A stretch of DNA of 64,000 bases from Onchocerca volvulus (taxonomy: Eukaryota; Nematoda; Chromadorea; Rhabditida; Onchocercidae). This document shows positions 4,083-41,749 of this stretch, in pieces. Both the position numbers and the translations under genes were made by a program. Under the pieces are notes generated by a model, which did no database searches, was not told the origin of the DNA, and was given only the letters and a program-made list of their open reading frames with translations. The stretch covers positions 11,370,616 to 11,434,615 of the forward strand of contig HG738139.1 in NCBI GenBank assembly GCA_000499405.2. Direction: 5' to 3'. Each line of letters begins with the position of its first letter. Position 1 is the stretch's first letter.

Positions 4083-4670
4083 CAAATTATGCAAAATTTT
4101 TGATTCAAAATGAATAACTTTTTTCCTTCATTGATAAGAATTCATAATTGCACTTGGAATCTTTTAAATTTTTAAATATCCACAGATAACCATATAAAAT
4201 CGTAATACGAATACAAATATGTAAGTAATTATTCTGATATATGTGTAACATACGTAAAGATAAATAATCGAACATAAGACATATGCGTATACATAAATGC
4301 ACGTGTAAGCAATCATATACACATTAATTTACTAGCTAACTGAACTGCAATACGAAAGATACTATATGTCACTGTTATGTCAAAAAACTGCGTTATGTAA
4401 TGCAATTTCTGTTGATAATTACTCATTTACATTGATAGATATTAATTATTTTGATGCGATATTAGTGAAGAAGTTATTTGAATCTGAATCGAATCAAATC
4501 AAGTCACTAAGAATGATTAATTGGAAATACAAATGGAAAATCTCTTGAAATAGTTGCTTTAATGATATCTTTGCTGTTGGGAGGAAAATTAACCAACAAG
4601 TAGACCAATTCCAATTTGGAATTTATAGGCACTGCAGAAATATCGATGATGTTACTTAGTGATGTTGATT
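4083..4670. other. Upstream region of the phosphorylase kinase gene, no gene seen
   Basis: AT-rich DNA upstream of the likely leader acceptor. A short open frame at 4366-4548 has no family resemblance and looks random. Confidence 0.4.
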
Positions 4671-4675
4671 TTTGA

Positions 4676-5023
4676 GAAATTAAAGAATGATAGGATTTGT
4701 AATACAGAACTTTTTTCGAAAAATTAGAGGAGATTTGTAATAAAAAATGTTTTTCAAGAAATTAGGGAGTGATAGAATTTGTGATATAGGACGTTTTTCG
4801 AGAAGCTAGAGAATAATAGGATTTATAAAACAGAACATCTTTCGAGAAATTAAGAGAATGACAAAATTTGAAACATTGAATGTTTTTTGAGAAATTAGAG
4901 ATTGATGGGTTTTGTAATATAAGACATTTTTCAAGAAATTAGAGAATGATGGAATTTGTAAAATAGAACGTCTTCCGAAAAATTGCAGAATGATAGGATT
5001 TGCAACATATAATATTTTTCTGA
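4676..5023. repeat. Degenerate 44-bp tandem repeat, eight copies
   Basis: Eight imperfect units of about 43-45 bp follow one another. The consensus begins GAAATTAGAGAATGATAGGA and continues ATTTGTAATATAGAACG then TTTTTCGA. Units differ by substitutions and small indels, so the array is old. It lies about 0.65 kb upstream of the phosphorylase kinase start codon. Confidence 0.85.
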
Positions 5024-9100: not shown

Positions 9101-10413
9101 TCATTTGGGGTTATTACGGGTTTTTATTATAGACAAAATATCCATGCATGTACGTAACTTCTTATTCTGATCAAAAATTTCAAGGTGTATCATGTACGGT
9201 ACATTATTCGGAAGCATTTCTATTAAGAATCGAATTTCGCTAAAATCGAAAATTAATGGTAATCGTTGCTGCCCACGTTGTATTGGGCATCGAACAGTTT
9301 TGTTGCATTTCACCAAATTATCTCTGAAAATAGGAAATGAAACTGAAAATTGGGATTTAATATCAAATTTTGAATATGAATATAATGGATAACGTTGTAA
9401 TGTCATTTCTTTTTTAAATAACATTGTGATGTTATTCCTTTTTTTTTTCCTTTTTTTTTTTTTGAAAGATTTTTCTTTATAGTCATTGCAAATAATGGAA
9501 AAATGAAAGGAAAAGAAACTAAAAAAAAATAGGTTGAACTTTTTCCCTAATGTTAAAGTAGAAATTTAATTTATGGATTTATGTGCATAATGCAACAAGC
9601 AATTGTTTTCCTAAACTATCCCTTAAAAATTTTTTATCAATTTTTTTTTTTTAATTTAACCAATATTTATACAGTCTGGTAGTTATCAAAAAATTTAATA
9701 GTTTCAAAAGTTTTTAAAGAAATTTGGTGTTTTTCAAAAAAAAAAAAGAAAAAAAAATTTCGAATAATTCCATTTGCATCTTTAGAAATTCATTAAAATA
9801 TGACGATGAAAATGATGGATATTACTGTAGCTTACAGTATTCCAAGAGTTGGGATTCGATGCCACCTACATCCAAGCCAACCGCCCCATTTGTACAGTTT
9901 GATGGTTGATTCCACATTATCAATTTGTCCACCGGTATTTGTTATATTAGTTAATATAATAAATGGTTTCATTGCATTGATCGGATAGATTCGTTTATCT
10001 ATAAATAAATTTTTCTTTTATACTTAATTTTTTAAAAATTTAAAGATGAAAATTTCAAAAAAAAAAAAAAAAAAAACGAAAAATTAAATGATAATTTCAA
10101 TAAATTAATGTTGTCAATTAATGAATTGTTTTATTTCCATAAAAATTCAATAATTAATAACACTATCTATGTGAAAATTATCGATATTGCAGGAAAAAGG
10201 AACATCATTTTCCAAATTGAAAATTTTCTTTTTTGTTTTCCTATTTTATAAAATCGAACAATTTTTATCAACGATCATTATATTGTGATATATTGTCGAT
10301 TCATTTGAGCAAGGAACCCAAACAAAATTAGATTCAGTGCCATTTGGAGCTTGACAAGCCATTTCACAGGGCGATATATTAACTGCTACAAACAGCAAAA
10401 TTAGAAATAGCAT
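9101..10413 (-). CDS. Secreted ML-domain lipid-binding protein, GM2-activator-like
   Basis: Three exons, 10413-10260, 9998-9836 and 9323-9101, join in phase into 179 residues. Residues 1 to about 16 (MLFLILLFVAVNISP) form a signal peptide. The core shows the pattern I associate with nematode ML (MD-2-related lipid-recognition) proteins: YPINAMKPFIILTNI (56-70), LYKWGGWLGCRWHRIPTLGI (86-105), DNLVKCNKTVRCPI (107-120), LPLIFDFSE, and PYMIHLEIFDQN ending in CMD. Six cysteines after the signal (20, 36, 95, 112, 118, 165) fit the disulfide-bonded beta sandwich. The family binds lipids in the lysosome or outside the cell; the ligand here is unknown. A CAG acceptor at 10424-10426 sits 10 bases before the ATG, suggesting trans-splicing. 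The exon 1 donor (T|GTTCGA) is weak but is the only one in phase. Confidence 0.82.
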
Positions 10414-10426
10414 TTTAGACAATCTG

Positions 10427-13400
10427 AAATGAATTAAATAATTCAAATTGAATAACGCCATTAATAGAAAGTTTAAATTCAAATACCGAATTATACAATC
10501 TCATTAATTTCAATAATATAAATGAATTCCATTTCGAAAAGGCTAAGAATAATACTTTGATATTTTACGTCAATTAGAAATGAAATTGCAAAGTGATGTA
10601 TAAAATAAAAGCATCTAAAAATAAATTTCATTCATGTCTTATTCTTAAAATTGAAAAAGAAATTAAAATTTTAAATATTTAACTTTTCAATTGTATTTCA
10701 AAATTTAAGATACCTATAAGAAATAAAAATTTTTTTACAAAAATGAATTTATTTAATTTGAAATTTTACCAAAATATGCAAAATTTTCTAAATCTTACTT
10801 TTCCATTCATTCTAAACTATTTTCTCAAATTAGGCAGAAATGAAACAATGATAATCATAAAGGAAGGAATTTCGATTTTTTGTTTGTGTTAAAATTTTAG
10901 CAAGACACAGGCCAAACTGACGAAATTATGTTTGTAGACAGAAATTGTTGTCAATAAAATATACTTCAGAATAACAGCTGATTCTTACACCAATCATTTG
11001 ATTTAATGATGACGTAATCAATCAATTTTCTTTTTGGATCTATTGATTTAGTTATGATATGACACTGATACTTTTGTCAATAAGAAATTATTTGAAGTAT
11101 TATTAAGAAATAAAACTTATGTTGCTAAAAATTGTGGTCTATTTCATTTGCAGAAATGTTTAAATTTTGTCAATTGAAACTTTTTTCAACCTAATTCAGG
11201 ATAGTATTCTTTAGTTATAATATGTATACACTAATTTTTCTTTTTATTTCAAAATATATTTCACGTAAACTAATAATATATTCACTGATGTAATATCTAG
11301 ACTTCGTTTTATTTTCTCACTTGATTCCAAATTTTTTGTAATATCCGTTTGAGCTGAAAGCTAAAGAAATGATTATTTTAAATTTGACGAATTAATCAGG
11401 CAAACATTTCATGGCTTCAATTCCAATACAAAAACTAACTCATTACATTGCATCAAATGAGTTTTATATCTAATATTTATTGTATATCTTGATTAATTTT
11501 GCAAATAAAGAAATGGAATATTTGTCAAGCATACTTTACATCACAAAGCAATTTTATCATTTAATTGAGAAACTGATATTGAAAAAACGGCGAATAAATG
11601 AAACATTTTATATATAATTATCTCCAAATATTATCAGAAATTATCATCACAGCAAAATAATTACGAATGCAGCCAGTTGCAGTATGTTAATATTATATTA
11701 TTTATTGTAATACATGATGGAAATAAAGTTTGGTTGGACAATTTTACAAGATAAACTTATGATTGTATTATCTAAGAATTTTTCTATCATTTCCCTTCTT
11801 CTTCTTGAAATTAATCTTAGAATAAGTAATAGTTTAATAATAATGATAAAAATCATTACAGTAATAATAATTGTTATTATGACTGTAACAATAATAAAAA
11901 AAATAATAATAATTCTTTTATGGCATGATATTTGATGGATGATAGTTTATAACAGCAAAATTGAATTCAATGAATGATAGAAATGAAAGAAATCTTTTCA
12001 ATCCTTTTATGAAATCTCAAAAAAAAGAAAAAAAAATGCCTGAAAGACAAAAATCACTTAAAGAATCATGAAATAATCACATTACTTGAAAATAGAATGT
12101 AAGAAATCGATCAGAATAATCTTTAATTGCAAGCTATTTGCAATTTTTTTGATCTTAACTAATAGCAGGTTGAAATGAGAAAATTTGCATTTAATCAGAA
12201 AATTTTATTAATTTTAGGCAAGAAGCTATGATACATTTATGAAATATGAAGGTGACAATATAAAAATAATCATTGGTCGATAATAAGCTTTCAAGATAGC
12301 TACAATACAAATATCTGAAATTGGTAAATGCTTCAAATGATCGAAATTCATAACATATATATGTGAAGCCTAATACAATTTACAAATATTAACTTGTAGC
12401 ACAAAAAGAAATAATTTACAACATTTTATCTTTAATAAAAAAAAGCTGGATAAGATTTTTTGATTGACACTACTGCAAAACCATGCTTAAGCTTTTAACT
12501 TGTCAACTAGAACATAATTTACAACATGTTAATATAGCACAAAGTGAGTTGATCATCATAGCACGACACAATTTTCAACATGTCAATTATAATGTAAAGG
12601 TCAAAAATTTGCTTCAACTAAGATATTTCTATAAAACAAAGATTCTTTGATCATTTGAGAATATCTGCACTACAAAAAATATTTCCGACACATGGAAAGA
12701 AAGATGATTATGGCTCTTATGATTATTGGTGTTTCGTTGATTATCTAATCGCATATCATTGTACTAATTATATTTCATTATCAAACATTTTTGAATAGAA
12801 AGTTGAACCATTTTATACTGTATGATATGACAAATCATACAGTATTCTTGTATCACTGTCACAAGAGTAAGCTATTTGCTTACTGTACAACTACTGTCAC
12901 TAATATCATCATTAATTGTCATATTTGTTTAATATTGTGACAATGCTATTACATTGTTTGCATGAGTATCATGTTGTAATTTGTAGCTACAATGACTGTT
13001 TGCACGTCATACTGTCATTAATTTTTGTAATTTGCAACATTTTGCTGCTCATTTTATTACTGTGAATTATAATTTATTATATCTTAACCAATAATATAAA
13101 TTGAATGAAAACAGAAAACTTGGAATAAATCAGAAAGTCATAACAAATGAAAATTTAATAATAGAAAAAAATTTACAATTAGTTCTTCTCACTGATTTAT
13201 GATCTCAAAAAAAAGAAAAAAAAATCTTTAATTATTGCAATAGAATCATGTGCTACTGTGTAAACATGACCGCCGTTGAAATTTGTAAAAACAATTAATT
13301 AAATAACGTTGATTGTTTTTAACAGACATAATTGAAGAATGAAAATGTAAAATGTTGAAACGATTGTAAAACTAAAACATATGGACAAATTGAAATCATA

Positions 13401-15810
13401 TGATTAGAAATAAAGTGGTTAATATATGTGCAAAAGTATGAAAAAATGTTTTTAATTTTGCAATTTTTTGAAATATCAGTTTCTACAATATTGATTCACA
13501 TGCTTCTTTTATTTTATGACAAAGGAAAAGGAGAGAAATATGCAGACTTATTTAATTTTTTATTTTTTATTTTGCAATTTTCTCTTTGTCAATCTTTTTA
13601 GGATTATAAATCAACGAAGAAGAAGAACTGGTTGTAAATTATTACTCATTATCAAATTTTTACCCAATTGCAGATTTTCTCATTTTTTTAATTATTTAAT
13701 CTTGATTTAAGACAATATAAAGATAAATTATATTGCGATAAATCAAATTCATTAACGAATTATTTAGTTTTACCTTCCTTTTTTTTTTTTTTTTATCAAT
13801 TTCTTATTATGCATTATTACATTCCATTAATTATTGAAATCAAAATTCAACGAAACAATTTTGATACATTGTTATTGAAATATTCATTTTTCACGTAATC
13901 ATGTATTCATTTTTAACGTAATCAAGTGTAATAATTATAATAATCATTTCAAAAAATTTTTTTTTATTTTTTATTAACAGCAAAATATTTTTTGTTCATT
14001 TTTGTATTTTGTTCTGCTAATTCGAAATTTATAACAGACATAACTGGATGCTAAGTATAATTTGCGAATGTGCAACAAACAATTCCGAGTTTTTTAAGAA
14101 TTTTACAAATAATATCAAAGATAACTACAAAACTTATCATGATCGATAAAATTATGTTCAAAGTCATAAGTTCACAACTGATATATCCTAATATAATTGA
14201 TAACAAAGTGTGAAATGGAATGAACTGAAAATTTGCGCTATACAAGTTATTCGTTATTGTCGTCATCGTTTAATCAATTTATCATATTTTCATAAATCAA
14301 TTTCATTATGTAAGATGAAATTTAATACTTTGATTTTAAAATATTTTGATTCTATTTTTTTTTAAATACTTTAATTATATTTTTATATTTTTGAATGTTT
14401 TACACAAATATTGATCTGAAATTGATGAGAAATAATGGAAAGAAAAATGATAGAGGGAAAATTTAAACTTTTTAATAATAAATTAAGTAAAAATTAAAAT
14501 AAAAGAAGATATACTGCATTTCAAAAAATTCGTAATTATATCAAAAATTAGCATTTCTTCAAAGATTAATAAATATGGAAATTAAAACAAAAAATGATTA
14601 AATGATTTCATTTTTTGATATAATTCCTTATTGTTTATTTGCATGTTTCCATTAGTTAAATTATCCAATCATCAAAACAAAAATAGGTTATTATTGATCG
14701 AAGCAAACTTGCTCCATTTACTACCTTTCTTATTTAAAAGTAAATTAAAATCTCACATACCTTTCAAATATTTGTCATATGATTAAAAATTTCAAATATT
14801 TTTCAATTACTTCATATTATATATTTCATATATAATTTTCAAATATTTTATATTTTTGATCGTTTAAAAATTAATCAATTTATCATGAAATAAAACTTTA
14901 ATAATTGATAAACAATTATTAATAACTGAATTTCCGATTTCGACATTTTAGGATTCAAATTCAGGAGTAAAATTTTTAAAAATGATAAATATTTTGAGTT
15001 TACAAAAATAATTATATATTTTTCATTTAAAAAAAAAAAATTATTATAATGGATTGCTATCATCATCGTTAAGGGATATAAACAATATCAAAAAAGAGAA
15101 TCGATATTTGCAGGATTGATGAATCAGTTTTTTCCGGCAAATATTGACTCTTTTCAGAAAAACATTTGTTCTACGTAATTCAAAGTAAATAATTTCGATA
15201 TTTCAATCAAAATTGTTTGAATAAGATTAAAATTTAAATTTTAACGATACTTGAATGATTGTAATTGAAGAAATGAGAATATTTCATTCATTTCAAATAA
15301 GAATAGACATCAATTTTTGCATTTATATTTCATATAAAATTATAAAATTTATAAAAATATTTTTTTTTCACTATTATTCCGCTTATTGAATCAATTTCAT
15401 CGATTTTATGAAATCGCCACTTTTTATAAAATAGGACTTTTTTTTCTTCAGAATCGTCACACTTGGAAATAGTCAGTATTAATTTTATAATTATTATGAT
15501 TTTGTTGTCAATGGTAACTTTTCTTTTAGATTTTTATCCATTTTAGAATACATTTTCAATCAAAGGATTCATCTACAGAGAAAAACTTGATCAACTGAAT
15601 AAAAATAGGTAAATTTTCAAACTTTTAATTTGAATTACAAAACTAAGATTAATTTAACTCATAACTAAATTTCGATTCGATTAGAAATGTTTGAATAAAT
15701 TGAATAAAATTTAATTAATGATCGGAGAATGATAATTTGATTATTGATTTATATCATTTAATGGGAAAAGGGTCAAATTTCATATTCAGTTGATCATATT
15801 TTTAATGCAA
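10427..15810. other. Gene-poor intergenic DNA
   Basis: About 5.4 kb of AT-rich sequence with poly-A/T runs and short repeated words, for example ATTTACAACAT near 12415 and 12520, and an 11-mer AACAGACATAA at 13321 and 14033. The longest protein-like minus-strand frame (14266-14051, 71 codons, hydrophobic) has no recognisable relative. Confidence 0.4.
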
Positions 15811-15863
15811 AAAAGTCAAATATCATATACGTCATTTAATGACGCATATGACATTTGACTCTT
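15811..15863. repeat. 53-bp near-perfect palindrome
   Basis: Arms 15811-15836 and 15838-15863 pair over 26 positions with three mismatches around a single central base (CATT-T-AATG). It could form a cruciform or a hairpin RNA, or be a remnant of a palindromic element. It lies about 430 bp outside the left arm of the large inverted repeat. Confidence 0.85.
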
Positions 15864-16292
15864 TTTTTTTTGTTTATTCATATGTTATTTTTCAGATTTA
15901 AATGATTCATCTCTTAACATATCAAAAATTCATATAGCATTGCTTAAATTTCACAATTTAATTTACATCATGCTTCATGTGATGGTAATATAAGTAAACA
16001 GACTTGTCATCATTGTTGTGAATTATGAAATTTGTTTTGCAATGTTGAACATGGCACATCAAATAAATAACTTTTCATCCATTATATTCACTTCAACAAT
16101 TCTTTCGTTTTTTTTTTTTTTTCATTCCTCTCGAAGGAAAAAGAAGAAAAAAACTTCTCGAAATATTGCAAAAATTTTTAAACATCGAATAACTCTTTTA
16201 TTTCGTCTGAAAAGAATATTACTCAACTAATTACGTCATCTTTACTTCAACTGATAACACTTTAATAGCTTTTCAAGACTTACGAATAATAA

Positions 16293-18377
16293 CAGACATA
16301 ATAAATGTCGACACATAATATTATCCTATAAACATCGAACATATTACTGTCCTGTTTTATGTTTATTTTATCATTTTTATTCCTCTTTCTATTTAAATAG
16401 AGAATGGATATCGATTCATTTGAAATTAACTTGAATCCACTTGAAGAGAAATTTCATCCTAATTTTTGGAAATTTTATATATCCTTTTTAAGACAAAGAT
16501 CAATTCAAGCTCTTTTAAATTGAAATGAATAGCAAAAATAGTATAACTATTTGACATAATAATAATAACCAACTTATGTAACGATGATTAACTGATATGA
16601 TTCTGATCAACTTATGTGACAATGACTAACTGATGTGATGATGACCAACTGATATGATGATGATCAATCAGAGGACAACGTTAATGAATGATAACAAAAA
16701 CCTTTTTTTTTTTATAGCGGCATTAATAGTAGAAGCAAAAAAATGATGTGATGATTTTTCAAATTTAATCTTTACTAGAATCTGAAATAAAAATCATTAA
16801 AATTTCAGGTGAAATTTTTAAATTTGGAATAATTTGGTTTGGGTATTTTTGGTTTTGCATCAATTATGTTAGAAGTATTGTAAGCAGTGGTTTGTTAGTT
16901 CATAATCGCAATTTATTCTTTAGTGATTTCGAATTATTAGATATAAATAGAAAAAGATTTTGCAAAGAAAAAAAAATTCAAAAACTTTGACAAGCCTTAA
17001 TCTAAAAATTGGAAAACAAAAGAAGGATTTCACCGGTCTTAAATTTTGAAATTATTGTTAAAAATTGATTGATTAAAATCTAAAATTACTCGTAAAATTT
17101 AAAACTACAAAAAAAATTACGAAATGAATAGTTTTGCAAGTTGCAAATTGCGAAATGAATAGTTTTTTATACTTTTTTTTTTCGTTAATCCGTTATTAAA
17201 GGCTTACATGTGAATGACACCTGTCACAACGAAAATGTAGAAGCGAGAAGTAATTTGTTAAAATGAGGAAATCCATTTCATCAATTTAGAAATATTTCCA
17301 TCTCAATTGTGGGGAAAGTTTAAGCAAATGAAATTTCATTTTTTTTTTTTTTTTCTGCAAAAACTGAGGAAAAATCAGTATTAGAGACATCTTGAAATGA
17401 AAAGATTTCAAATGAAATTTTTCAAATGTGAAAATATATTGTTTTGATAATATTCAAAACTTGACTTATTTTGCATTTAAATAATTAATTAATTTTATGT
17501 TTCCATCCGGGTTTTAATTTCAATTTTTCTTGTGATAAATATTTGAGTGAATTAATATTATATATGCATTTTATCACATTCTTAAATCTTATATTATTTT
17601 TTGAAGATGATTTCAAGTTTAGTTTCAATTAAAATTAATTGGCAATATTTTTTCGCTTATTTCTGACTAATTAGTTTTAATTACAATTTTAGTTGTAGTA
17701 AAAAGATTCAAAAGATTTTTGGATCATTTTTATTATTAATTAGGCTGTCTATTTTCAATAGATCTAGTCATAATAGAATTACAAGTTTCTCTTTTACTCA
17801 AATTTTGCTGAGTTTTTTTGAAGGAGAGGTTGACTATAATTTACTAGAAAAACCTATAATTTAGTTCATTATTTTTCTTTTCCGAAACATGTTTGTTTAA
17901 TTTTAGGGTAAAGCAAGCAACTTGTAACAAAGTTCTAAAATTTATTCTTGAAATAAAATTGTTTTTCTAATTGCTGATGTAATTAAATGAGTCAGTTAAC
18001 TAAAGAGGAAAGATTATCTAAAAAATTTTCAACATTTGTTTCAAGTTAACTGAAATTGAATACGAGTTTCAATCAATCCAAAGAAAAAAAGCGTCACCTG
18101 ACCGCAAAGTTTTCGTAAAGTTTTGCAAGAAATCATTTATCAATCAGCAAACGAGAAATTATAATGAGAGGTCAAAGACAAGCTTTGATCAATTTCAAAA
18201 TAATGAAACGGGACCATCTATTTATCTCAAAATTAATGAATAGTGATCATTTGTTTATCTCAAAATTTCTTTCTGCAGCTATTCATCTGCAAACAAACAA
18301 AATTATATGGAAAGGTCATGGGTTATAATTTAAGATAAATTTAAATATAATGAAAAGGCAAAACAAAATCATATGGA
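16293..18377 (+). repeat. Left arm of a 4.7-kb inverted repeat
   Basis: About 2,085 bp that recur as the reverse complement at 18922-21006. The arm starts CAGACATAATAAATGTCGAC and ends AAAATCATATGGA. I compared several stretches and found only scattered differences: single-base changes near 16560, 17290, 17468 and 17685, and one inserted A near 16645. Identity is therefore very high, probably about 99%. The arm has no plausible coding frame. No target-site duplication is evident outside the arms. Confidence 0.97.
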
Positions 18378-18921
18378 AAAGTCAGGGACTATAATTTAGT
18401 TAATTCATTTCATAAATTTGACAAATGTTTGCTTCTTCATTCATATATTTCTTCATATCCTATTCAAGAATTTCATTTCTTTTCAAAGAAACTAACAATT
18501 AGTTTTTTTGATTATCAAATTTTGCTAAAAATGTTTAACGATGAAACTAAATTTGATATGACTAATTTCTTTCGTTTAAGAATTTCCTGTTAGTCAGAAT
18601 TTTCAAAATTCATCCTTTGATTTTATTTAAATACAAGTGTTTATTTTGCTGACAAATGTTCCCGATGAAAAGATATTCACATTGTGAAATGAAATCAATA
18701 AATATGATTCATTATTATCAAACATTTGAAATTAGCAAATCGAAATTGATAATAAAAAATTATTTTGCAATTGAAAAAAATAGGAAATATTAGAAGATTA
18801 TATATAATGGAAAAATAGGAAATGAAAAATAATAGTACAAAAAAAGACGAAAATAAAACTGAAATGTACAATGAAAAGGATATGATTTTTTTTTTGTTTT
18901 GCCTTTTTCATTATATTTAAA
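18378..18921. repeat. Spacer (loop) of the inverted repeat with partial tandem duplications
   Basis: 544 bp of unique AT-rich DNA between the arms. At its left edge a diverged second copy of the last ~60 bp of the left arm begins (TATGGAAAAGTCAGGGACTA against TATGGAAAGGTCATGGGTTA at 18305). At its right edge (about 18880-18921) a second copy of the last ~45 bp of the right arm is present. The arms thus end inside short tandem duplications. Confidence 0.85.
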
Positions 18922-21006
18922 TCCATATGATTTTGTTTTGCCTGTTCATTATATTTAAATTTATCTTAAATTATAACCCATGACCTTTCCATATAATTTT
19001 GTTTGTTTGCAGATGAATAGCTGCAGAAAGAAATTTTGAGATAAACAAATGATCACTATTCATTAATTTTGAGATAAATAGATGGTCCCGTTTCATTATT
19101 TTGAAATTGATCAAAGCTTGTCTTTGACCTCTCATTATAATTTCTCGTTTGCTGATTGATAAATGATTTCTTGCAAAACTTTACGAAAACTTTGCGGTCA
19201 GGTGACGCTTTTTTTCTTTGGATTGATTGAAACTCGTATTCAATTTCAGTTAACTTGAAACAAATGTTGAAAATTTTTTAGATAATCTTTCCTCTTTAGT
19301 TAACTGACTCATTTAATTACATCAGCAATTAGAAAAACAATTTTATTTCAAGAATAAATTTTAGAACTTTGTTACAAGTTGCTTGCTTTACCCTAAAATT
19401 AAACAAACATGTTTCGGAAAAGAAAAATAATGAACTAAATTATAGGTTTTTCTAGTAAATTATAGTCAACCTCTCCTTCAAAAAAACTCAGCAAAATTTG
19501 AGTAAAAGAGAAACTTGTAATTCTATTATGACTAGATCTATTGAAAATAGACAGCCTAATTAATAATAAAAATGATCCAAAAATCTTTTGAATCTTTTTA
19601 CTACAACTAAAATTGTGATTAAAACTAATTAGTCAGAAATAAGCGAAAAAATATTGCCAATTAATTTTAATTGAAACTAAACTTGAAATCATCTTCAAAA
19701 AATAATATAAGATTTAAGAATGTGATAAAATGCATATATAATATTAATTCACTCAAATATTTATCACAAGAAAAATTGAAATTAAAACCCGGATGGAAAC
19801 ATAAAATTAATTAATTATTTAAATGCAAAATAAGTTAAGTTTTGAATATTATCAAAACAATATATTTTCACATTTGAAAAATTTCATTTGAAATCTTTTC
19901 ATTTCAAGATGTCTCTAATACTGATTTTTCCTCAGTTTTTGCAGAAAAAAAAAAAAAAAATGAAATTTCATTTGCTTAAACTTTCCCCACAATTGAGATG
20001 GAAATATTTCTAAGTTGATGAAATGGATTTCCTCATTTTAACAAATTACTTCTCGCTTCTACATTTTCGTTGTGACAGGTGTCATTCACATGTAAGCCTT
20101 TAATAACGGATTAACGAAAAAAAAAAGTATAAAAAACTATTCATTTCGCAATTTGCAACTTGCAAAACTATTCATTTCGTAATTTTTTTTGTAGTTTTAA
20201 ATTTTACGAGTAATTTTAGATTTTAATCAATCAATTTTTAACAATAATTTCAAAATTTAAGACCGGTGAAATCCTTCTTTTGTTTTCCAATTTTTAGATT
20301 AAGGCTTGTCAAAGTTTTTGAATTTTTTTTTCTTTGCAAAATCTTTTTCTATTTATATCTAATAATTCGAAATCACTAAAGAATAAATTGCGATTATGAA
20401 CTAACAAACCACTGCTTACAATACTTCTAACATAATTGATGCAAAACCAAAAATACCCAAACCAAATTATTCCAAATTTAAAAATTTCACCTGAAATTTT
20501 AATGATTTTTATTTCAGATTCTAGTAAAGATTAAATTTGAAAAATCATCACATCATTTTTTTGCTTCTACTATTAATGCCGCTATAAAAAAAAAAGGTTT
20601 TTGTTATCATTCATTAACGTTGTCCTCTGATTGATCATCATCATATCAGTTTGGTCATCATCACATCAGTTAGTCATTGTCACATAAGTTGATCAGAATC
20701 ATATCAGTTAATCATCGTTACATAAGTTGGTTATTGTTATTATGTCAAATAGTTATACTATTTTTGCTATTCATTTCAATTTAAAAGAGCTTGAATTGAT
20801 CTTTGTCTTAAAAAGGATATATAAAATTTCCAAAAATTAGGATGAAATTTCTCTTCAAGTGGATTCAAGTTAATTTCAAATGAATCGATATCCATTCTCT
20901 ATTTAAATAGAAAGAGGAATAAAAATGATAAAATAAACATAAAACAGGACAGTAATATGTTCGATGTTTATAGGATAATATTATGTGTCGACATTTATTA
21001 TGTCTG
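18922..21006 (-). repeat. Right arm of the 4.7-kb inverted repeat
   Basis: Reverse complement of 16293-18377, ending GTCGACATTTATTATGTCTG at 21006. Poly-T/A runs differ slightly in length between the arms, as expected of two independent copies. No gene is visible. Beyond 21006 the sequence is unrelated to the left flank. Confidence 0.97.
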
Positions 21007-24000
21007 CAATTTTATTTGCAACAAAATGTTTATAAAATATTTCAAAAATCAAATGCTTACGTAGTATTTCGAAAATGAGGAAATAAGCAGAAACTAGAAT
21101 TTGCTTGATGCTTACTATGTTTGCAATTTTATTTACAAATGAAATATTTACTATATAATATTTGGGAATTTCATACAGGAAACAAATTAGTTGTTTACTG
21201 TTATGTGAGAGAATTTGCATAGTGAAAAATGAAAAATAACAACTATTATCTAATTTCCTAAGCCATTAATTATATAAGATATGTAATTAATAAATATACA
21301 TATGTCTATTTTATTTTTGTTATTTCTCAGATATGTCTCTCATTTCAAATTATTATTAACAAAATTTGAAATTTTAGAAAATTTCAAAATTTAATTTAGT
21401 CATTATTATCCTTTACGATATAATAATTTGCATAGAGCTTTAGCATATCGATATAAATCAATTTTTGAATATATTTAAATTTTTTATAATTGTTTTTAAT
21501 CCTTAACATGTAATTTCCTTGTTAATAAAAGGAAAATTGCATTCTTTTTAAATTAGTAATCGATTTATGAAAAAATAGGACTGTCTGCAATCGATAGTAT
21601 TTTCAAATTAATTACAGTCAGAAATTTTCAGTATGTTTCAAGTAATTTCAAAAAAAAAAAAAAAATTTGGTAGACAAAACAATTATTTAAAATATTTCGA
21701 AAAAAGAAGCTCCCACAATCAGTAAAAAAACTTTTTTAATAGAATAAATATTATCGCAATCAATTTTATTTTTTAAATGTCCATTCGACTGAAAAATAAA
21801 AATTACTTTCCTACAAATGAAAAATTGTGTCTTTTACTTTTATCGTTAATCAATTTTTTTTTTCGAAAATAATAAGTAATTTTCTTGATTTTCAAATTTA
21901 AAAAATTTAAAAAATTGCTAAAAAAATCAAATTTTAAAAGAGTGAGTAACTTTTGAAATTTCAAATTTGAAGAATTTTTCATTTTTCGTTAGTTGATGGA
22001 TGTGATAAAGTGATAAAAGGAAGGGAATTTTTTTTTTTTTTTTTCTTGTTTGGGTAAAAGTGAAAAAAAGAGAGAAAAATGTAGAAAGAAGCGGATTTTA
22101 GAGATAATTCTTGAGATTCCTGTATATAGTAGATAGATGAATTTGATAAATGATTATGTGCTTTATGTAAAATGGGATGAAAAAAAAAGCAACAAAAGAC
22201 ATTTATCATTCATTGATATTTTTCTGGATTATGCTTCATTTGAAAGAAACAATGAAATAAAAAATTGTAAACAATTTTTCTTTTTCTTTTTTTTTTTTTT
22301 GTTTTGAAAACTTGAATTTTTATTTTTGAAATACTGAAATGCTTCATCATTATATATGTATATATGCAATGTTAACAATAATAATAAATATTGATTTTTG
22401 ATATATTATATTTTTCTATTCTATTACAGATATTTATCACTCATTGATATTAATACCAATAATTTTTTTTTTCTTATTTCATTTCAACGAAATTCTTAAT
22501 TCGAAGCATTTTTTGATTTAATTTCCAATAATATATTTGATATTTATTCTCGATATTTTTTAAATTATTCATTAATAGCACAAAAATATATGATTAAAAT
22601 ATGTTACATATCAGTTTTCAAAATTTTCTTTTTTTTATTAATCCATAAGCTCAATTTTACGAAGAATTAAAATATATAAAATATCGATTTTTTATTTCAT
22701 TATCCGACAAATCATAGGAAGACTTATTATTATTATATAAAAACTTAAATTCTCATTAATCAGATAATTTTCATTTATTTTAAATTAAATGGAAGAAGTA
22801 TGAATGATTGAAAGATGAATGTGATCATTCATCTCATTCGATCATACTTTATTTCTTCTATTATGATATTCTCCCTGAAGTTAAACAATTCTCTTATTCA
22901 ATTTTCTTTTTTTCTCGAAAATTCTTAACAATTTTCTGAAATGATTCAATATTACTGAAGCAGAAAAAGAATTGAAAATGGCAAAAGAAAAGTAATATCG
23001 ATAAAAGATAGGAAATTAAGTTAGGCTATAAAAAAAGAGATGAAAATTAAATTGCGAAAAATTTCAAAATGATTGCAAGATTTTACGAAAAATTAGAAAT
23101 AAAAATTCCAAACAGAAATAAAATATTTGAAAAAAAAGAAATTATTTAAAAAGTAGGACAATTAAAGAAAATAGCAATTGCTTGTATCAGAAATTGAAAT
23201 GGTATTGATAAGAAATCATCTATTATTACTGTTATTGATTAATGATGATTGACAATACAAATGATGAAAAAAGTGATATGAATTAAATCATCCAGAAATT
23301 ATGATAAGAAAATTAACAGAAATAATTATTATACAGGAAAAAAAATTATAATAATGAATAGAAATAGAAATACATAAAAATAATTGAAATAGTTATAACA
23401 GTTAAATGAGAAGGATAATAATGTTAGCAACAATATATGACAATATTAATTAGAATAATAAGAAGAGTGATAATGAAATTAACGAGTTATAATGATTAAT
23501 GATAAACTAACTATCTAACTCAAATCAAAAATAATTTAAAATTCATTAATTTCATTCTCATTAAGGATCGATAATGAACCAATGAATTGGAAAATATCAT
23601 ATTATTTATATCTAATTATCTAACAACTTTTTCATAATGAACCATCTTTTATTTTGTTTTTGATAATTGCTTAATCTACTTATTTCTTTAATGATAATCA
23701 CGATAAATATATTTAATTTCAAGTATATTACAATATTCGATTATCTATTTTTTCGTTGACTGATTATTACATATCGCCTATGATTTTTTCTCATAATTTT
23801 AAATATCCTAAAAATTCTTCTCATAAATTTATATATTTTCAAATAATCTTTTTTAATTTCAAGTATTTTGATGTACAAATCAACAACCTTAAAGCTTTTT
23901 TCATCAATTTTTCATGTCACATTAAATACATGATGGAGAAATGAAATAAAAAGAAGTCTATATTGGACATGAACTAAACATTGACAAAAAAAAAAAAAAA

Positions 24001-30539: not shown

Positions 30540-33500
30540 ATGACGATCATTGATACGTTAGCGGTTAATGCTAATAATATTTTACCACTACCATCAAAAA
30601 CAACGACAACAACAACAACAACAACAACCGCTAATACATTACCATCATCTGACACCGAAGCCCAAATCATCAGTGATATGGAAGATGCTCCTCCGGTATC
30701 ACGAAAATACGGTACTTCCGTACCGGTAATACCGATAACAACAGGAAGCATCAAATCGGAAATCATGAAACAAATCTACTGTAGTGGTTCACTTCTTGAA
30801 GCAGTTCAAAAGGCACACATCTTTCACGATTGTAAACATTTCGTTGACATGCCACTCAAAATTGATGCTGGTTAGTTTTTTTTATTCTTTTAAATTTAAC
30901 AAATTTGATGATCTTTTTCTTTTCAAGTATGACCTGGTATTAAATTAGGTTAAATCCGGTAATGATAGAATTTCGGGAAGGTCGAAAATATGGTTGTTTG
31001 ATCAAGATTTTAAATTTAAAATGTCATGCTTTTATTTTCTCAAATATATTGCTATCACCGAGATATTTTGATATATTCTTTTTTTCATTGATTGATCGGT
31101 AGTATTTCTCAGAATATCCTGATTCTTTTTTTTTGATATGCAAATTTTCGTAATATAACCGGATGACATCACCGGAATGATGAAATATTTGATAGAAGGA
31201 AGAAAGAGAGAAGGACAGACAATTGATTATTGGATTATCGAAGCACATTTTTAAGAGTGTATGTGTCTGAGTAGTACCATTGATATTTGTGTGTAACAGA
31301 TCAGAGATTTATTCTGCATTTTGCATAATCGATTCGTTTTGCGTGCTACACTCAACATTTGCAGTTTATAGTAATAAAAGGCAAGGGATGATATATATAT
31401 ATATATGTATTGAACTATTCCACACAATCAAAACTTTATACTGGAATTATCAATAAACTTAAAATGAAGAATGAATATTATTTCAAGATTAATCAAATTC
31501 CACTCATTTTTATTATTTTTCTGCATACACGCACATGCACCCATATATCTCTATAATTAATTACATTATTTTTTTAAACATTTCTCGTACCAATCCATCA
31601 AACGTAAAGTTTAAACTTCTTTTTTTATTGGACTTTCTTCTTTTCAAAAATACCACCAACTGGCACTTTTTTTAAAAGTTTTTTTTTAATAGTTGAGTTA
31701 TTTCTAGCTTTCTACTTGTCAAAATTGCAAGTTGTTTTGCAGAATCAACACTGCAAGATTGGCAAGAATTAATTGCATCTGGTCAAATCGATGAGAATTC
31801 GCTGCGACGTTTCGTTGAAAATCATTTTGATGAACCAGGTGGCGAATTAGACAACTGTGAACCAAGTGATTTCGATCCGGAATATGGCAGATTTGAATCC
31901 ATTAATTCTCCATCATATCGTCAGTGGGCTAAGGAGCTTCATCGTAAATGGCCTGCTCTATGCCGTAAGGTAAGTATCTTTTTTTTTCTTTTTTTTTTTT
32001 TTTTATTGTTTTCGAATTTCACAGGAGGTAAGTGTCGGATGGAATTTCCGAATATAAAAAAGATGTGAAAGTTAGATTTTCAGTCATGTATTTCGAAATC
32101 TGACTTTTGCATTTAATGTTAGCATTGCTTGGAAGCTTCCAATTAAATTTTTGCAATGTCATTAGAAAAATTGAAGCTAAGAAAGGGAAAAAGTAATATA
32201 TTATTGCACTTAAATTTTCGTTTCTTGGAAGCTTCCGATCTGTCATTCCATGCTACAATTTAAAAATGAAGGTTTACTCAGGCTTGTTTTCAATGCTTCC
32301 TAATTCCTTCGATAATTGTCAGTGTTACCGGGTCTTCCCTTGCAAAATGGATATTTTTTTCTATTAAATTTAGAAAGAGTTTTTTTTTAAATTACAAAAC
32401 ATAATGTCTCTCCAACTTACCCTGAACATCATTAATACTAATTACCTATTACAGAAAAAGAAAAAATTACGGCCATTAAAATGATGGAAACATAAATTTA
32501 AGATGGAACATAAATTTAATACCTCTTTTCCGACTTACTAATTAAGTGGTTTTCAATGATACAAAAATTTTTCTTGTCAAAATAAAGAAGCTGGAATTGA
32601 ACGAACTTCAAAAAATGTCTGCCGCATCGAAACGTGTGCATAAAAAAGCTGGTCTTCGTTTTATTTCACTGGCGTTTGATTGCAAAATAAAAGAAAGCGA
32701 TTTAAACATAATTTATTTGGACTCGATTAAAATTCCATGGACTAAACAACTTTTCCATCTCATTTTAGTTTGTTAGAAGTTTAGTGAAATAGTAGTGGTA
32801 TAAGCAGACCAGCTTTATCTAGTGATGTATATAGTTAAACTTGAAGAATAGATTGAGTAAGTCGGAGAGGTATCGTATACTTTAGATATTTTTCCCCTTT
32901 GGTTCGATAGATTTGATTTTATGGGAATTCGTTGAGAAGGTTCTAACTTATTTCACCGCAGTTTGGGATCTTTTGCTTCAGAATATAGAATTCTCCCCCT
33001 TATCGTATCCCCTGTTATCCTTTCCAATAATATCCCATCTTCGGAATATTTAAGTTTTCTTCAGGTAATGCTGCTCGACTTTTTTGTTTTTGATTCATTC
33101 AAACTAGACGTGATGCTTTTCTGAACTTCAAACAATACGGGTAGGTTATTAGTGGTGATTGTTTCGGTTTTCATAAATTTCGAAGTCAATATTTCATGCT
33201 TACTACTTCCATGCATTAATTATCGGTATTTACCGATTTTGTTTTGCATCTGGATTTGAGAAATTTATTCCTACTATGCTTAATTTGCAAATTATCGCAT
33301 CGGCCAAGTTTCTCCCATTTTTTTTTTCTTTTTTATTGCCCTTTGAAAATATCAGTGTCTTTTTACTTTTTCAATTAGAATGGATCTTTGCGGGAATTCT
33401 TTGGAACTTCCAGAGAAAAATTCTAGAAACTTTGGATAGTTTCAGAAAAGCATCACCGAATTGTTTCTGAATATTATTTTTTCATGAAGTGAATGATGAT

Positions 33501-36500
33501 TTTTTTGGAAATATCGGAAGTCTAAAAAAATAAGAATTGTAGCCAAAATCTTCATGAAAATATTTCATTCAGAAACGAATTAGAACTTATTTTTGTTTCT
33601 TTTTCTTTTTTTTTTTTTTTTTTTTTGTTTTTGTTTTTATTTTGCAAGTAGGAATTCCGTATTGCCGCACACAAGGTTTACAATTGAAATTTGATAAAAC
33701 TCTCCCTGGACTCCTTGAAATATTTTAGGAATTCCTGCTGCCACCATCATCTACATCATTCAGAAGCCCGATATATGTATACCGGAAACGTTTTGAATCG
33801 CTCTTCTAAATGGTACCAACAACAATATCAACAATAGAACATATATATGTATTTATACAAACAATTACTGTTTGTGTAATCAACAGGTGATCACTACATT
33901 CCGGAGTTTTCCGGAATCATGCATCATCAACAAGAAACAATGGAATGACGTCGTCACTGTCATTCAACGAACACTAAAGAATCTTAGGAATCGCTTAGGC
34001 AACTAGAATTTAGGTTTATCGTAGTTTTGTAGTTTATTAGGGCATGCATCAAGGTTTCATCTAAATTCAATACTTATTCTTCAGCTTCTCGCTACACAAG
34101 GTTTGCTTTTTTTTTTTCATTTAATTCTCGTTTGCATTAATTTATGAAACCTTGATGCTAGATAACTAGTTTATTATAGGAAACATGTTTTTGCAATTAG
34201 GATTGTTCTCTTTTCCGCATTTCTCTTTCTCTTAATTTTAAAATAATTTCAATAATTTTATTTATTCTTCGAATGAGTTTTTATCTAGTACTATTACTAA
34301 TGAATAATTTAATCTTAAACTATACTCATATTTTTTGGTTTTAAATGCAATTGCATAACTGAGCTAAGCAATGCTGACTTAAGATTTTTTTGACTAAAGG
34401 ATGCACATATTGCGAACGGGGAACTGCAGTGCCGAAATTTCAATGCCGGAATTTTCTGCCAAAAAATTTACCGAAATTTGCAATGCCGAAATTTCATGCC
34501 AAAAAATTTACAAAAAAATATTTCATCAAAAAGCATCTCAACTGTTGGTACTGTTATCATAAGAGGGTTGTAGGTAACTTCTTGATTGTTTTTGTTCTGA
34601 TTTACCAGGTTCTTTTCCTTAATTATTTATAATTTCAGGTTTCGGATCGTGTCATTGCTGATCCGGAAAAATTCTCTTTGATTCCGCTACCGAAACCATT
34701 CGTGGTGCCCGGTGGACGTTTCCGGGAAATGTACTATTGGGATAGCTTCTTTACCATCAAGGGCCTTTTGGCTTCAGGCATGCATGACACCGTACGTGGA
34801 ATGATTGAAAATATGGGGAGTCTCATCGAAAGGTAATTTTTATGTTTTGATATACTTAGATCATAGAAAGCATCGTAGATAATTTCGACATCGAGATTCA
34901 AGTTTTAGATTCAAATTCTTTTTAAACATATATGAGTTTAAAGTTAATTATTATATTAAATTTCCAGATTTGGCTATGTTCCTAACGGAAATCGCGTATA
35001 CTATCTCAATCGATCTCAACCTCCATTACTCACTTGGTGTCTCTCTGCATATTACGAAGCAACAGGTGATAAGGAATTTGTCTTGACTGGTGCTCGTTGG
35101 TTTGAAAGAGAATTCGAGTTCTTCCAAACACATAAGTAAGTGTTGAATTTGATAGCAAAAGAACTTATGTTATTTACATAGTCGAAGTTGGGTTGGTAAT
35201 GGAATTTAAATAAAGGGTGTGGATTTTGATAAGTATAAAATGTTCCTTCTCGAAATTTCAGATCAATTCAGCTGCCTGGTGTGACATCATTGTTATATCG
35301 CTACCATGTTGTAGCCGTTGGTCCACGTCCGGAAAGCTACCGTGAAGACGTTGAAAGTGCTCATCATATCGAGGATGTACTAGAAAAACAACGTTTATGG
35401 GGTGACATAGCAGCTGCAGCTGAAAGTGGACGAGATTTCAGCTCACGTTGGTTTTCTCGAGATGGACCTGTGGCTGGTAAAATAGGTTCTACACGGTATA
35501 TAACTTTCAACTATTTCAATTTATTCTCTTTGAATTTACTGTATTAAAATGGCTTTGCATAAATGTGTTAATCGATTCACATTTATCTGATTACAAAAAA
35601 AAAATTCATTGCAAGATTGTAACAAAAAATTACTTTATAAATGAACTTCATGAATGATCAATTAGCATGACAATTAAGATTATGAAGATTATGAAACATG
35701 CTCATTTTGGGATGCATTTCCAGGACTAGTTCTATCTTACCGATCGATTTGAATGCAATAATTTGCGGAAATTTCCGTTTAATGGCTAATTTGTATGAAG
35801 TAATTGACGATATGTCAAGTGCTGAGCATTGTCGAGAACAGTTCAAAAATATGAAACAGGCAATCCATCAGGTATTCTGGAATGAGGAATGTGGTTGCTG
35901 GTTCGATTATGACATTATTCATGGTTGTCATGTTAATCTCTATATGGATACCAACTTCTTTCCATTGTTTACTGGATGTACGCATGATGGTGAGAACATT
36001 TGATTCATTTAATTTATTCAAGAAAAGTTGATTTCAAATTTTCATATCAGCAGAAAATGTGCAAGACTAGAGAGCGGGATTTGATCGGAATTTAATTATA
36101 AAAGTTGCTGCAAAAATAATTAGATGTTCTTTTATCAGTATAGTCTTAGCATATTTCTTACAGGGATTTTTTGTGACAGTTTTTTCGACACATTTCTCGA
36201 AATTAAGAGTGGTAATTGAAGCAGTATAAAAATATGAACATGGGAAATATAGCTTATAAATTTATTCATTTAATTTAATTCAAAGTTTAGAATTTATCTT
36301 GTTCAAATTAATCTTTGTAAAAATTAGAAAATTTTTGGATAAAACAAAAGAAGTATGCTTGAATTTTGCAAGTATTTTATTTACTTCATTTTTAGGTTTC
36401 GATCCACAAAAAATAGTATCATACATGACGAGTACGGGTGTTTTGGCATTCCCAGGTGGTTTACCAAGTTCACTGATAGCATCCGGTCAGCAATGGGATT

Positions 36501-36994
36501 TTCCGAACGCTTGGGCACCAACAACTTGGGTTGTAATACAGGGTTTGCGTGCCAGTGGTCAACATGAACTTGCTCGCCACATTGCCGAGAAATGGATCAA
36601 ACGAAATTATGGCATGTGGCGTGTTTCAGGTGGACGAATGTTTGAGAAGGTTAGCATTTTTGAAATCTGTGATTGAATCTGAGTTGTATATGTAAATCGA
36701 ACTAATTAGGTATGTGAGAATAATTGAAATTTCTTAAATTTTCAGTATAATGTTGCGTCACAAAACTATAATACAGCTGGAGGTGGTGGCGAATACGAAG
36801 TACAAGAAGGATTTGGATGGACTAATGGCGTTATCTTAGATTTGCTTCTCACATATGGACCTGATTTGAACTTCAAGTCGGATAATGATACACCTCTGAC
36901 AACAGATGAAGTATATGTTTGCTGTCAGGATCACCAGCAAATTCCTGGTGGTGTTACATCCACTGACATCCATACTGGTACCTTCACTAACTAA
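30540..36994 (+). CDS. tre: Trehalase (GH37), complete, eight exons
   Basis: Hydrolyses trehalose to two glucose units. Exons 30540-30870, 31743-31969, 34639-34832, 34968-35135, 35262-35495, 35724-35989, 36396-36649 and 36746-36994 join in phase into 640 residues. [11 protein letters not shown] opens the catalytic domain (about 79). The first trehalase signature is [15 protein letters not shown] (210-224), and the second is [10 protein letters not shown] (506-515). GPRPESY (about 327-333) and [18 protein letters not shown] (570-587) are also typical. By comparison with E. coli Tre37A the general acid is Asp365 and the base Glu574, both present. The residue before Asp365 is Arg where the family normally has Trp. 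The N-terminus has no signal peptide and carries ten consecutive Thr (21-30), suggesting a cytosolic enzyme, though an N-terminal alternative exon could exist. Intron 2 is 2.7 kb and the others are mostly short. The frame is open upstream of 30540, so an earlier start is not excluded. Confidence 0.95.
33721..34010. other. GC-richer island inside trehalase intron 2
   Basis: Contains an inverted repeat ATTCCGG (33898-33904) / CCGGAAT (33911-33917) and a CRE-like TGACGTCGTCA (33946-33956). It may be an intronic enhancer or an alternative promoter. No start codon in frame with exon 3 was identified. Confidence 0.3.
34030..34176. mobile_element. Candidate small MITE in trehalase intron 2
   Basis: A 126-bp segment (34041-34166) is flanked by direct repeats TAGTTTATTA (34030-34039 and 34167-34176). 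It carries subterminal inverted repeats GCATCAAGGTTTCAT (34046-34060) and ATGAAACCTTGATGC (34144-34158), a perfect 15/15 match. No coding content. It looks like a non-autonomous insertion with target-site duplication; the superfamily is unknown. Confidence 0.6.
34426..34520 (+). repeat. Short tandem repeat in trehalase intron 2
   Basis: TGCCGAAATTTCAATGCC and TGCCAAAAAATTTAC recur after about 55 bp (CAATGCCGAAATTTCATGCC, then AAAAAATTTAC). It lies 120 bp before exon 3. Confidence 0.65.
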
Positions 36995-41677: not shown

Positions 41678-41749
41678 GGTCCCGTGGTGTAGTGGTTAGC
41701 ACTCAGGACTTTGAATCCTGCGACGGGAGTTCAAATCTCCCCGGGACCT
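41678..41749 (+). tRNA. tRNA-Gln (anticodon TTG)
   Basis: 72 nt without intron. The acceptor stem GGTCCCG pairs with CGGGACC, and the discriminator is T. The D arm contains TAGTGGTTAGCA. The anticodon stem CAGGA/TCCTG encloses the loop CTTTGAA with anticodon TTG. The T arm is GGGAG-TTCAAAT-CTCCC. All stems pair fully, so the gene looks functional. The T run after it is short (TTT). Confidence 0.96.

What the first reader, a model, noticed from the sequence alone, without database searches (positions are those of the whole stretch)
16293..21006. A 4.7-kb inverted repeat with ~2.08-kb arms of about 99% identity
Seen directly: 16293-18377 recurs in reverse complement at 18922-21006 around a 544-bp spacer, with only scattered single-base differences. 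There is no coding content and no evident target-site duplication. Possible natures are a giant foldback/MITE-like element, a very recent inverted duplication, or a locus whose read-through transcript is a long hairpin feeding the endogenous siRNA machinery. Long palindromes are normally unstable in genomes, so persistence would be notable. An assembly artefact must be excluded first.
Basis: partly seen in the sequence, partly recalled or inferred. Interest (0 to 1): 0.88.

Follow-up and report, generated by a model that had tools for sequence, protein, structure and literature searches.

The report
Recent inverted duplication in filarial worm
A 2.1-kb stretch of non-coding DNA in a parasitic roundworm genome is present twice, head to head around a 544-base spacer, most likely as an ordinary recent copying accident, though a short-read assembly error has not been ruled out.

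Summary
The repeat is in the sequence as described: 16293-18377 recurs in reverse complement at 18922-21006 around a 544-bp spacer, with 5 substitutions and 2 one-base indels (99.7%). Searches of the 94.7-Mb genome found arms, spacer and flanks at this locus only, apart from short weak matches. I found no target-site duplication and no protein domain in the frames tested. The genome is probably the short-read, optical-map assembly of Onchocerca volvulus (inferred). The anatomy fits a fold-back or template-switch duplication: the spacer ends in an inverted near-copy of the adjoining arm motif, as in human fold-back duplications (PMC3907307). Arm divergence (0.0024) equals nucleotide diversity of O. 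volvulus chromosome 2 (0.0022; PMC12212510), so the event may be as young as ordinary alleles, or the arms may be two haplotypes misjoined in assembly. Reads would be needed to decide. A hairpin RNA feeding siRNA is possible but has no evidence here. Long near-perfect intergenic inverted repeats are known in nematodes (PMC1803023). Verdict: known kind, modest interest, artefact unresolved.

The parts
16293..18377 (+). left arm of the inverted repeat (2085 bp, 24.7% G+C)
18378..18921 (.). 544-bp single-copy spacer (21.5% G+C)
18922..21006 (-). right arm, reverse complement of the left arm with 5 substitutions and 2 one-base indels
18340..18374 (+). unit 1, motif at the inner end of the left arm (its right-arm twin is 18925-18959 on the - strand)
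18880..18921 (-). unit 2, inverted near-identical copy of unit 1 at the right end of the spacer, directly abutting the right arm; differs from left-arm unit 1 only in the length of two A runs
18361..18417 (+). tandem unit A2 that straddles the left inner boundary (18377/18378); similar to A1 at 18295-18346 inside the arm
20995..21042 (+). tandem unit that straddles the right outer boundary (21006/21007); similar copy at 21112-21163 in the right flank

Best explanation
A young, single-locus inverted duplication of non-coding DNA in a gene-poor interval on a 16.6-Mb scaffold (probably autosomal) of a filarial nematode. A replicating or resected strand folded back on a short inverted homology at the edge of what is now the spacer, copied about 2.1 kb of its own template in reverse, then rejoined the chromosome at the outer junction. 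The 544-bp spacer is the fold-back loop. Shown: the geometry, the near-identity, the single locus and the short homologies at the joints. Inferred: the replication mechanism, the order of events and that the assembly is right. It probably has no selected function. If transcribed it would form a long double-stranded RNA, but transcription is not shown.
For: Arms 99.7% identical with 5 substitutions and 2 indels spread along the arm. Of 5 homopolymer runs of 8 bp or more in the left arm, 4 have the same length in the right arm and one differs by 1, as expected of a young copy. One locus in the genome apart from a 38-bp match. The spacer's right end carries an inverted copy of the arm's inner motif; its local-alignment score was reached by 0 of 300 Markov shuffles (the stretch was chosen after the likeness was seen by eye), and unit 2 differs from left-arm unit 1 only in two A-run lengths. 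[quoted passage not shown] of its 21 sequenced junctions 13 had 2-8 bp of inverted microhomology, 3 had repeat-element homology and 5 had insertions. The outer right joint lies inside a 48-bp stretch repeated nearby (0 of 300 shuffles), so a homology-assisted return is possible. No N run in the window.
Against: The same short homologies could help a gap-filler make a false join. Which arm is the original is unresolved: tandem units straddle the left inner boundary and the right outer boundary, so each arm has one junction that looks old. Unit 2 and unit 1 are both kept in tandem, whereas simple in-register fold-back priming would merge them into one, so an extra slip is needed. The 544-bp spacer is shorter than the 766-70,466 bp range stated in PMC3907307. 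Spacer left half against reverse-complemented right half gives a weak similarity (10 of 300 shuffles reach it) that could hint at an older, decayed repeat. Collapsed short reads could make the arms look more alike than they are. No outgroup was available.
Confidence: 0.58

Rival explanations
1. Assembly artefact: the true genome has one copy; the second arm is the other haplotype of the same worm, misplaced in reverse orientation during scaffolding, gap filling or manual joining.
For: The assembly was probably made from 400-550-bp paired-end and 3-kb mate-pair Illumina libraries of one adult female, with gap closure by IMAGE and GapFiller and manual finishing. Arm divergence 0.0024 (95% Poisson 0.0008-0.0056) equals nucleotide diversity 0.0022 of chromosome 2 (PMC12212510, passages): 4.6 substitutions expected, 5 seen (8.3 would be expected at the older global estimate of 0.004 quoted in the same paper).
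Against: The paired-end libraries were PCR-free, and the final assembly was checked by REAPR with the mate pairs and guided by an optical map. Two separate false joins plus a unique spacer would be needed. No direct or inverted duplicates of 500 bp or more were found in two 100-kb samples, so haplotype duplication is not rife there, but 200 kb is a small sample. No alternative-haplotype contig was found for either flank.
Confidence: 0.25
2. Old inverted repeat kept alike by arm-to-arm gene conversion, as proposed for Caenorhabditis intergenic inverted repeats.
For: Precedent in nematodes: long near-perfect inverted repeats more alike within than between species (PMC1803023, parts 1 and 2 of 4). 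Tandem units straddle boundaries of both arms, as expected if both junctions are old and conversion tracts end there. Weak similarity between the two halves of the spacer (10 of 300 shuffles).
Against: No paralogous gene pair was seen in or beside the repeat (a limited set of frames). Identity drops abruptly at both ends; the outer flanks show no decayed inverted similarity (234 of 300 shuffles score at least as high).
Confidence: 0.12
3. Endogenous long-hairpin locus: a read-through transcript folds into about 2 kb of dsRNA, is edited by ADAR and diced into siRNAs that act on other targets.
For: The 4714-nt strand folds with 2083 of 2085 left-arm bases paired to their partner (true of any such repeat). 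Two exons matching the adenosine-deaminase (editase) domain PF02137 lie on the same scaffold (the family also holds tRNA deaminases, recalled, so ADAR itself is not proven). In C. elegans over 98% of the edited regions of one study contained inverted repeats and/or overlapped transposons (PMC4282642, passages).
Against: Arms match nothing else in the genome beyond a 38-bp stretch, so there is no evident trans target. No evidence of transcription. The RNA-dependent RNA polymerase search did not complete.
Confidence: 0.05

Closest known systems
Fold-back inverted duplications with a single-copy spacer (PMC3907307, PLoS Genet 2014; abstract and passages)
   Same: inverted copies, unduplicated spacer as the presumed loop, homology between spacer end and start of the inverted copy
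   Different: theirs adjoin terminal deletions, translocations or ring chromosomes and, in the table rows I saw, run from 10 kb to 42 Mb with spacers of 766-70,466 bp by their text; this one is 2.1 kb with a 544-bp spacer and is interstitial, so it needs a second join back to the chromosome
Caenorhabditis long intergenic inverted repeats (Zhao et al. 2007, PMC1803023; parts 1 and 2 of 4 read)
   Same: nematode, intergenic, near-identical arms, spacer of hundreds of bp (their HSP16 example has 414 bp)
   Different: the examples described include duplicated gene pairs and persist between species; here no gene was found in the arms and no species comparison was possible
Foldback / MITE-like transposable elements (features recalled)
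   Same: inverted-repeat architecture
   Different: single locus, no target-site duplication
Endo-siRNA hairpin loci such as those of Drosophila (PMC5392987, search listing only)
   Same: would give a long hairpin RNA if transcribed
   Different: no evidence of expression, small RNAs or targets

Membership tests
fold-back / template-switch inverted duplication | two near-identical inverted copies around a single-copy spacer | tested here: met
fold-back / template-switch inverted duplication | inverted homology at the edges of the spacer | tested here: met
   (30 aligned columns with one gap, 0 of 300 shuffles); the register is not that of simple priming
fold-back / template-switch inverted duplication | ancestral or sister chromosome without the duplication | not testable with these tools
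   no relatives are held; no alternative contig found in the genome
foldback/MITE transposable element | multiple dispersed copies | tested here: not met
   the two arms and one 38-bp match only
foldback/MITE transposable element | target-site duplication | tested here: not met
   4-12 bp, boundary shifts -3 to +3
gene-converted long inverted repeat (Caenorhabditis type) | arms more alike within a species than orthologues between species | not testable with these tools
   no related genome held
gene-converted long inverted repeat (Caenorhabditis type) | paralogous gene pair in or beside the arms | tested here: inconclusive
   none seen, but only longer frames and a chosen set of short ones were scanned; short exons could hide
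endo-siRNA hairpin locus | small RNAs or ADAR edits mapping to the arms | not testable with these tools
   no RNA data
assembly artefact | no long molecule spanning both arms / normal depth over the arms | not testable with these tools
   no reads held; methods of the probable source assembly

The most novel reading that the evidence does not exclude
A young, possibly still polymorphic 2-kb inverted duplication has created, between two genes of a human filarial parasite, a ready-made long-dsRNA locus from unique sequence: a natural case of a new hairpin-RNA source being born, catchable before gene conversion or decay.
Probability: 0.08. Interest if true: 0.6.

Novelty: new member of a known kind. 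Interest (0 to 1): 0.27.

Why it matters
If real, it is a clean example of an interstitial fold-back duplication in a filarial nematode, roughly dateable by its few differences, and a place to ask whether a newborn hairpin locus is transcribed, edited or diced. If false, it marks a misjoin in a parasite reference assembly. Neither changes the picture of known mechanisms.

Tried and rejected
Transposon or MITE family: rejected, no other copies found and no target-site duplication. Coding or domesticated gene in the arms: no support (10 frames scanned, 3 with weak Pfam matches, CagL E 0.017, DUF7774 E 0.071 and FSAP_sig_propep E 0.057, all far below curated cut-offs and taken as chance). Rfam family: only the tRNA at 41678 in the whole window at the gathering threshold. 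Empty-site haplotype among the other contigs: none found by searching the left flank (14300-16292, itself only) and right flank (21007-23000; itself plus 6 short matches of 38-117 bp at 74-95% identity). Decayed older repeat beyond the outer ends: no signal (234 of 300 shuffles); between the halves of the spacer: weak (10 of 300). Direct similarity of left and right outer flanks: none (55 of 300 shuffles). GST as a species marker: uninformative, the 37-residue exon aligned over only 28 residues to its best solved match. Literature: the searches listed no paper whose title or abstract start describes this locus or a filarial inverted-repeat siRNA locus; one search returned none and one search listed all 10 of 10; searches list only 20 of 124, 34, 105 and 999 papers, and no body text was read beyond the papers cited.

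Full report
Observation. Local alignment of the arms shows 5 substitutions (left-arm sites 16563, 17285, 17463, 17682, 18355) and two one-base indels, 99.7% identity. Of the substitutions, 4 of 5 are transitions. Of 5 homopolymer runs of 8 bp or more in the left arm, 4 keep their length in the right arm. By blastn (E up to 1e-10, low-complexity masking) the next-best inverted match in the window is 102 bp at 81%; in two 100-kb samples from contigs C1 and C2 the best is 385 bp at 79% with a separation of about 23 kb, and no direct or inverted duplicate of 500 bp or more was found in either sample.

Where it lies. The window is G000:C4:11370616-11434615 of an unnamed 94.7-Mb genome in 115 contigs. 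Five contigs whose full lengths were shown measure 2.82, 28.35, 25.49, 16.64 and 16.05 Mb, which fits the four large scaffolds of 16-31 Mb described for Onchocerca volvulus (PMC5310847, abstract, section 16 and passages) if C1 and C2 are two parts of one chromosome; that paper gives 97 Mb in all, so the copy held here would be somewhat reduced. A DHFR exon matches its best solved DHFR chain at 59 of 76 residues (my count of the printed alignment); that this chain is filarial is recalled. I take the genome to be O. volvulus, and C4 to be its chromosome 2 (OM3), by inference. Around the repeat the DNA is A+T-rich and gene-poor: G+C is 0.226 and 0.227 in the flanks and 0.247 in the arm. The nearest genes I could recognise are a minus-strand gene at about 9.1-10.5 kb, possibly of the ML-domain kind (E 0.0033, below the curated cut-off, from guessed exons), and trehalase exons from 31.7 kb on the plus strand. 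The repeat therefore probably sits in a divergent intergenic interval.

What it is not. The left arm finds only itself, the right arm and a 38-bp match in the whole genome (the tool warns that very common words are skipped). The spacer finds itself and the arm motif. No target-site duplication of 4-12 bp was found. So it is not a member of a foldback or MITE family with detectable copies in this genome. Ten frames from the arms, spacer and neighbourhood gave no Pfam match above a curated cut-off (3 of 10 had weak matches).

How it arose. The inner and outer joints carry short homologies. At the right end of the spacer, unit 2 (18880-18921, minus strand) is an inverted copy of unit 1 at the inner end of the left arm, differing only in the lengths of two A runs; none of 300 shuffles reached the score (stretches chosen after the likeness was noticed). 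Unit 2 abuts the right arm's own copy of unit 1, making a tandem pair. At the outer right joint, a stretch straddling the boundary recurs 117 bp downstream (0 of 300 shuffles). At the inner left joint, unit A2 straddles the boundary and resembles A1 inside the arm (not tested against shuffles). [quoted passage not shown] in yeast a break near natural inverted repeats drives inverted duplications (PMC10622511, start of abstract and passages). I infer a fold-back or template-switch event. Since the two copies of the unit are kept in tandem, a simple in-register fold-back does not suffice; a short first copy followed by a slip back and a second, long copy would do. The spacer is also shorter than the range PMC3907307 states. 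Which arm is the original cannot be told: each has one junction that looks old.

Age and artefact. Substitution divergence is 5/2084 = 0.0024 (95% Poisson interval 0.0008-0.0056). Nucleotide diversity on O. volvulus chromosome 2 is 0.0022 in Ghanaian microfilariae (PMC12212510, passages). The arms are thus about as different as two alleles. This fits a young, perhaps still polymorphic duplication, and equally fits two haplotypes of one worm misjoined. The source assembly, if I have it right, came from one adult female, PCR-free 400-550-bp paired ends and a 3-kb mate-pair library, with gap closing, manual finishing, an optical map and a final REAPR check. Mate pairs of 3 kb can just span a 2.1-kb arm, so the structure is resolvable in principle but not proven; reads from the two arms may also have been merged in polishing, which would hide differences. 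No contig with an empty site was found.

What it might do. Transcribed through, the locus would give a duplex of about 2.08 kb (2083 of 2085 left-arm bases paired as expected), which is a consequence of the repeat and no evidence of function. Two exons of an adenosine-deaminase (editase) domain exist in the genome. The search for the RNA-dependent RNA polymerase did not complete in five tries. In one C. elegans study over 98% of edited regions held inverted repeats and/or overlapped transposons (PMC4282642, passages). Without RNA data the siRNA reading stays a possibility of low weight, the more so because the arms match nothing else that could be a target.

Comparison and verdict. Long near-perfect intergenic inverted repeats, for which gene conversion is proposed, are described in Caenorhabditis (PMC1803023, parts 1 and 2 of 4). 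This one differs in showing no genes and in having no species comparison. It is a new instance of a known kind, with an unresolved chance (about one in four, my estimate) of being an assembly error. Interest is modest.

Noticed in passing
window 9101-10500, minus strand: Three frames that look like exons of a small secreted gene; joined by guess they give a sub-threshold match to the ML domain (E 0.0033, 18.2 bits against a cut-off of 22.7).
   Followed up: partly
window 31697-36676, plus strand: Trehalase gene in at least two exons (Pfam PF01204).
   Followed up: no
window 55361-55810, plus strand: Frame with a sub-threshold DUF383 match (28.3 bits against a cut-off of 33.2).
   Followed up: no
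window 4670-5020: Degenerate tandem array with 44-bp spacing.
   Followed up: no
window 22251-22368: Part of the right flank that matches 5 places elsewhere in the genome at 74-88%, perhaps a fragment of an old dispersed repeat.
   Followed up: no
window 41678-41749, plus strand: tRNA-Gln (TTG).
   Followed up: no
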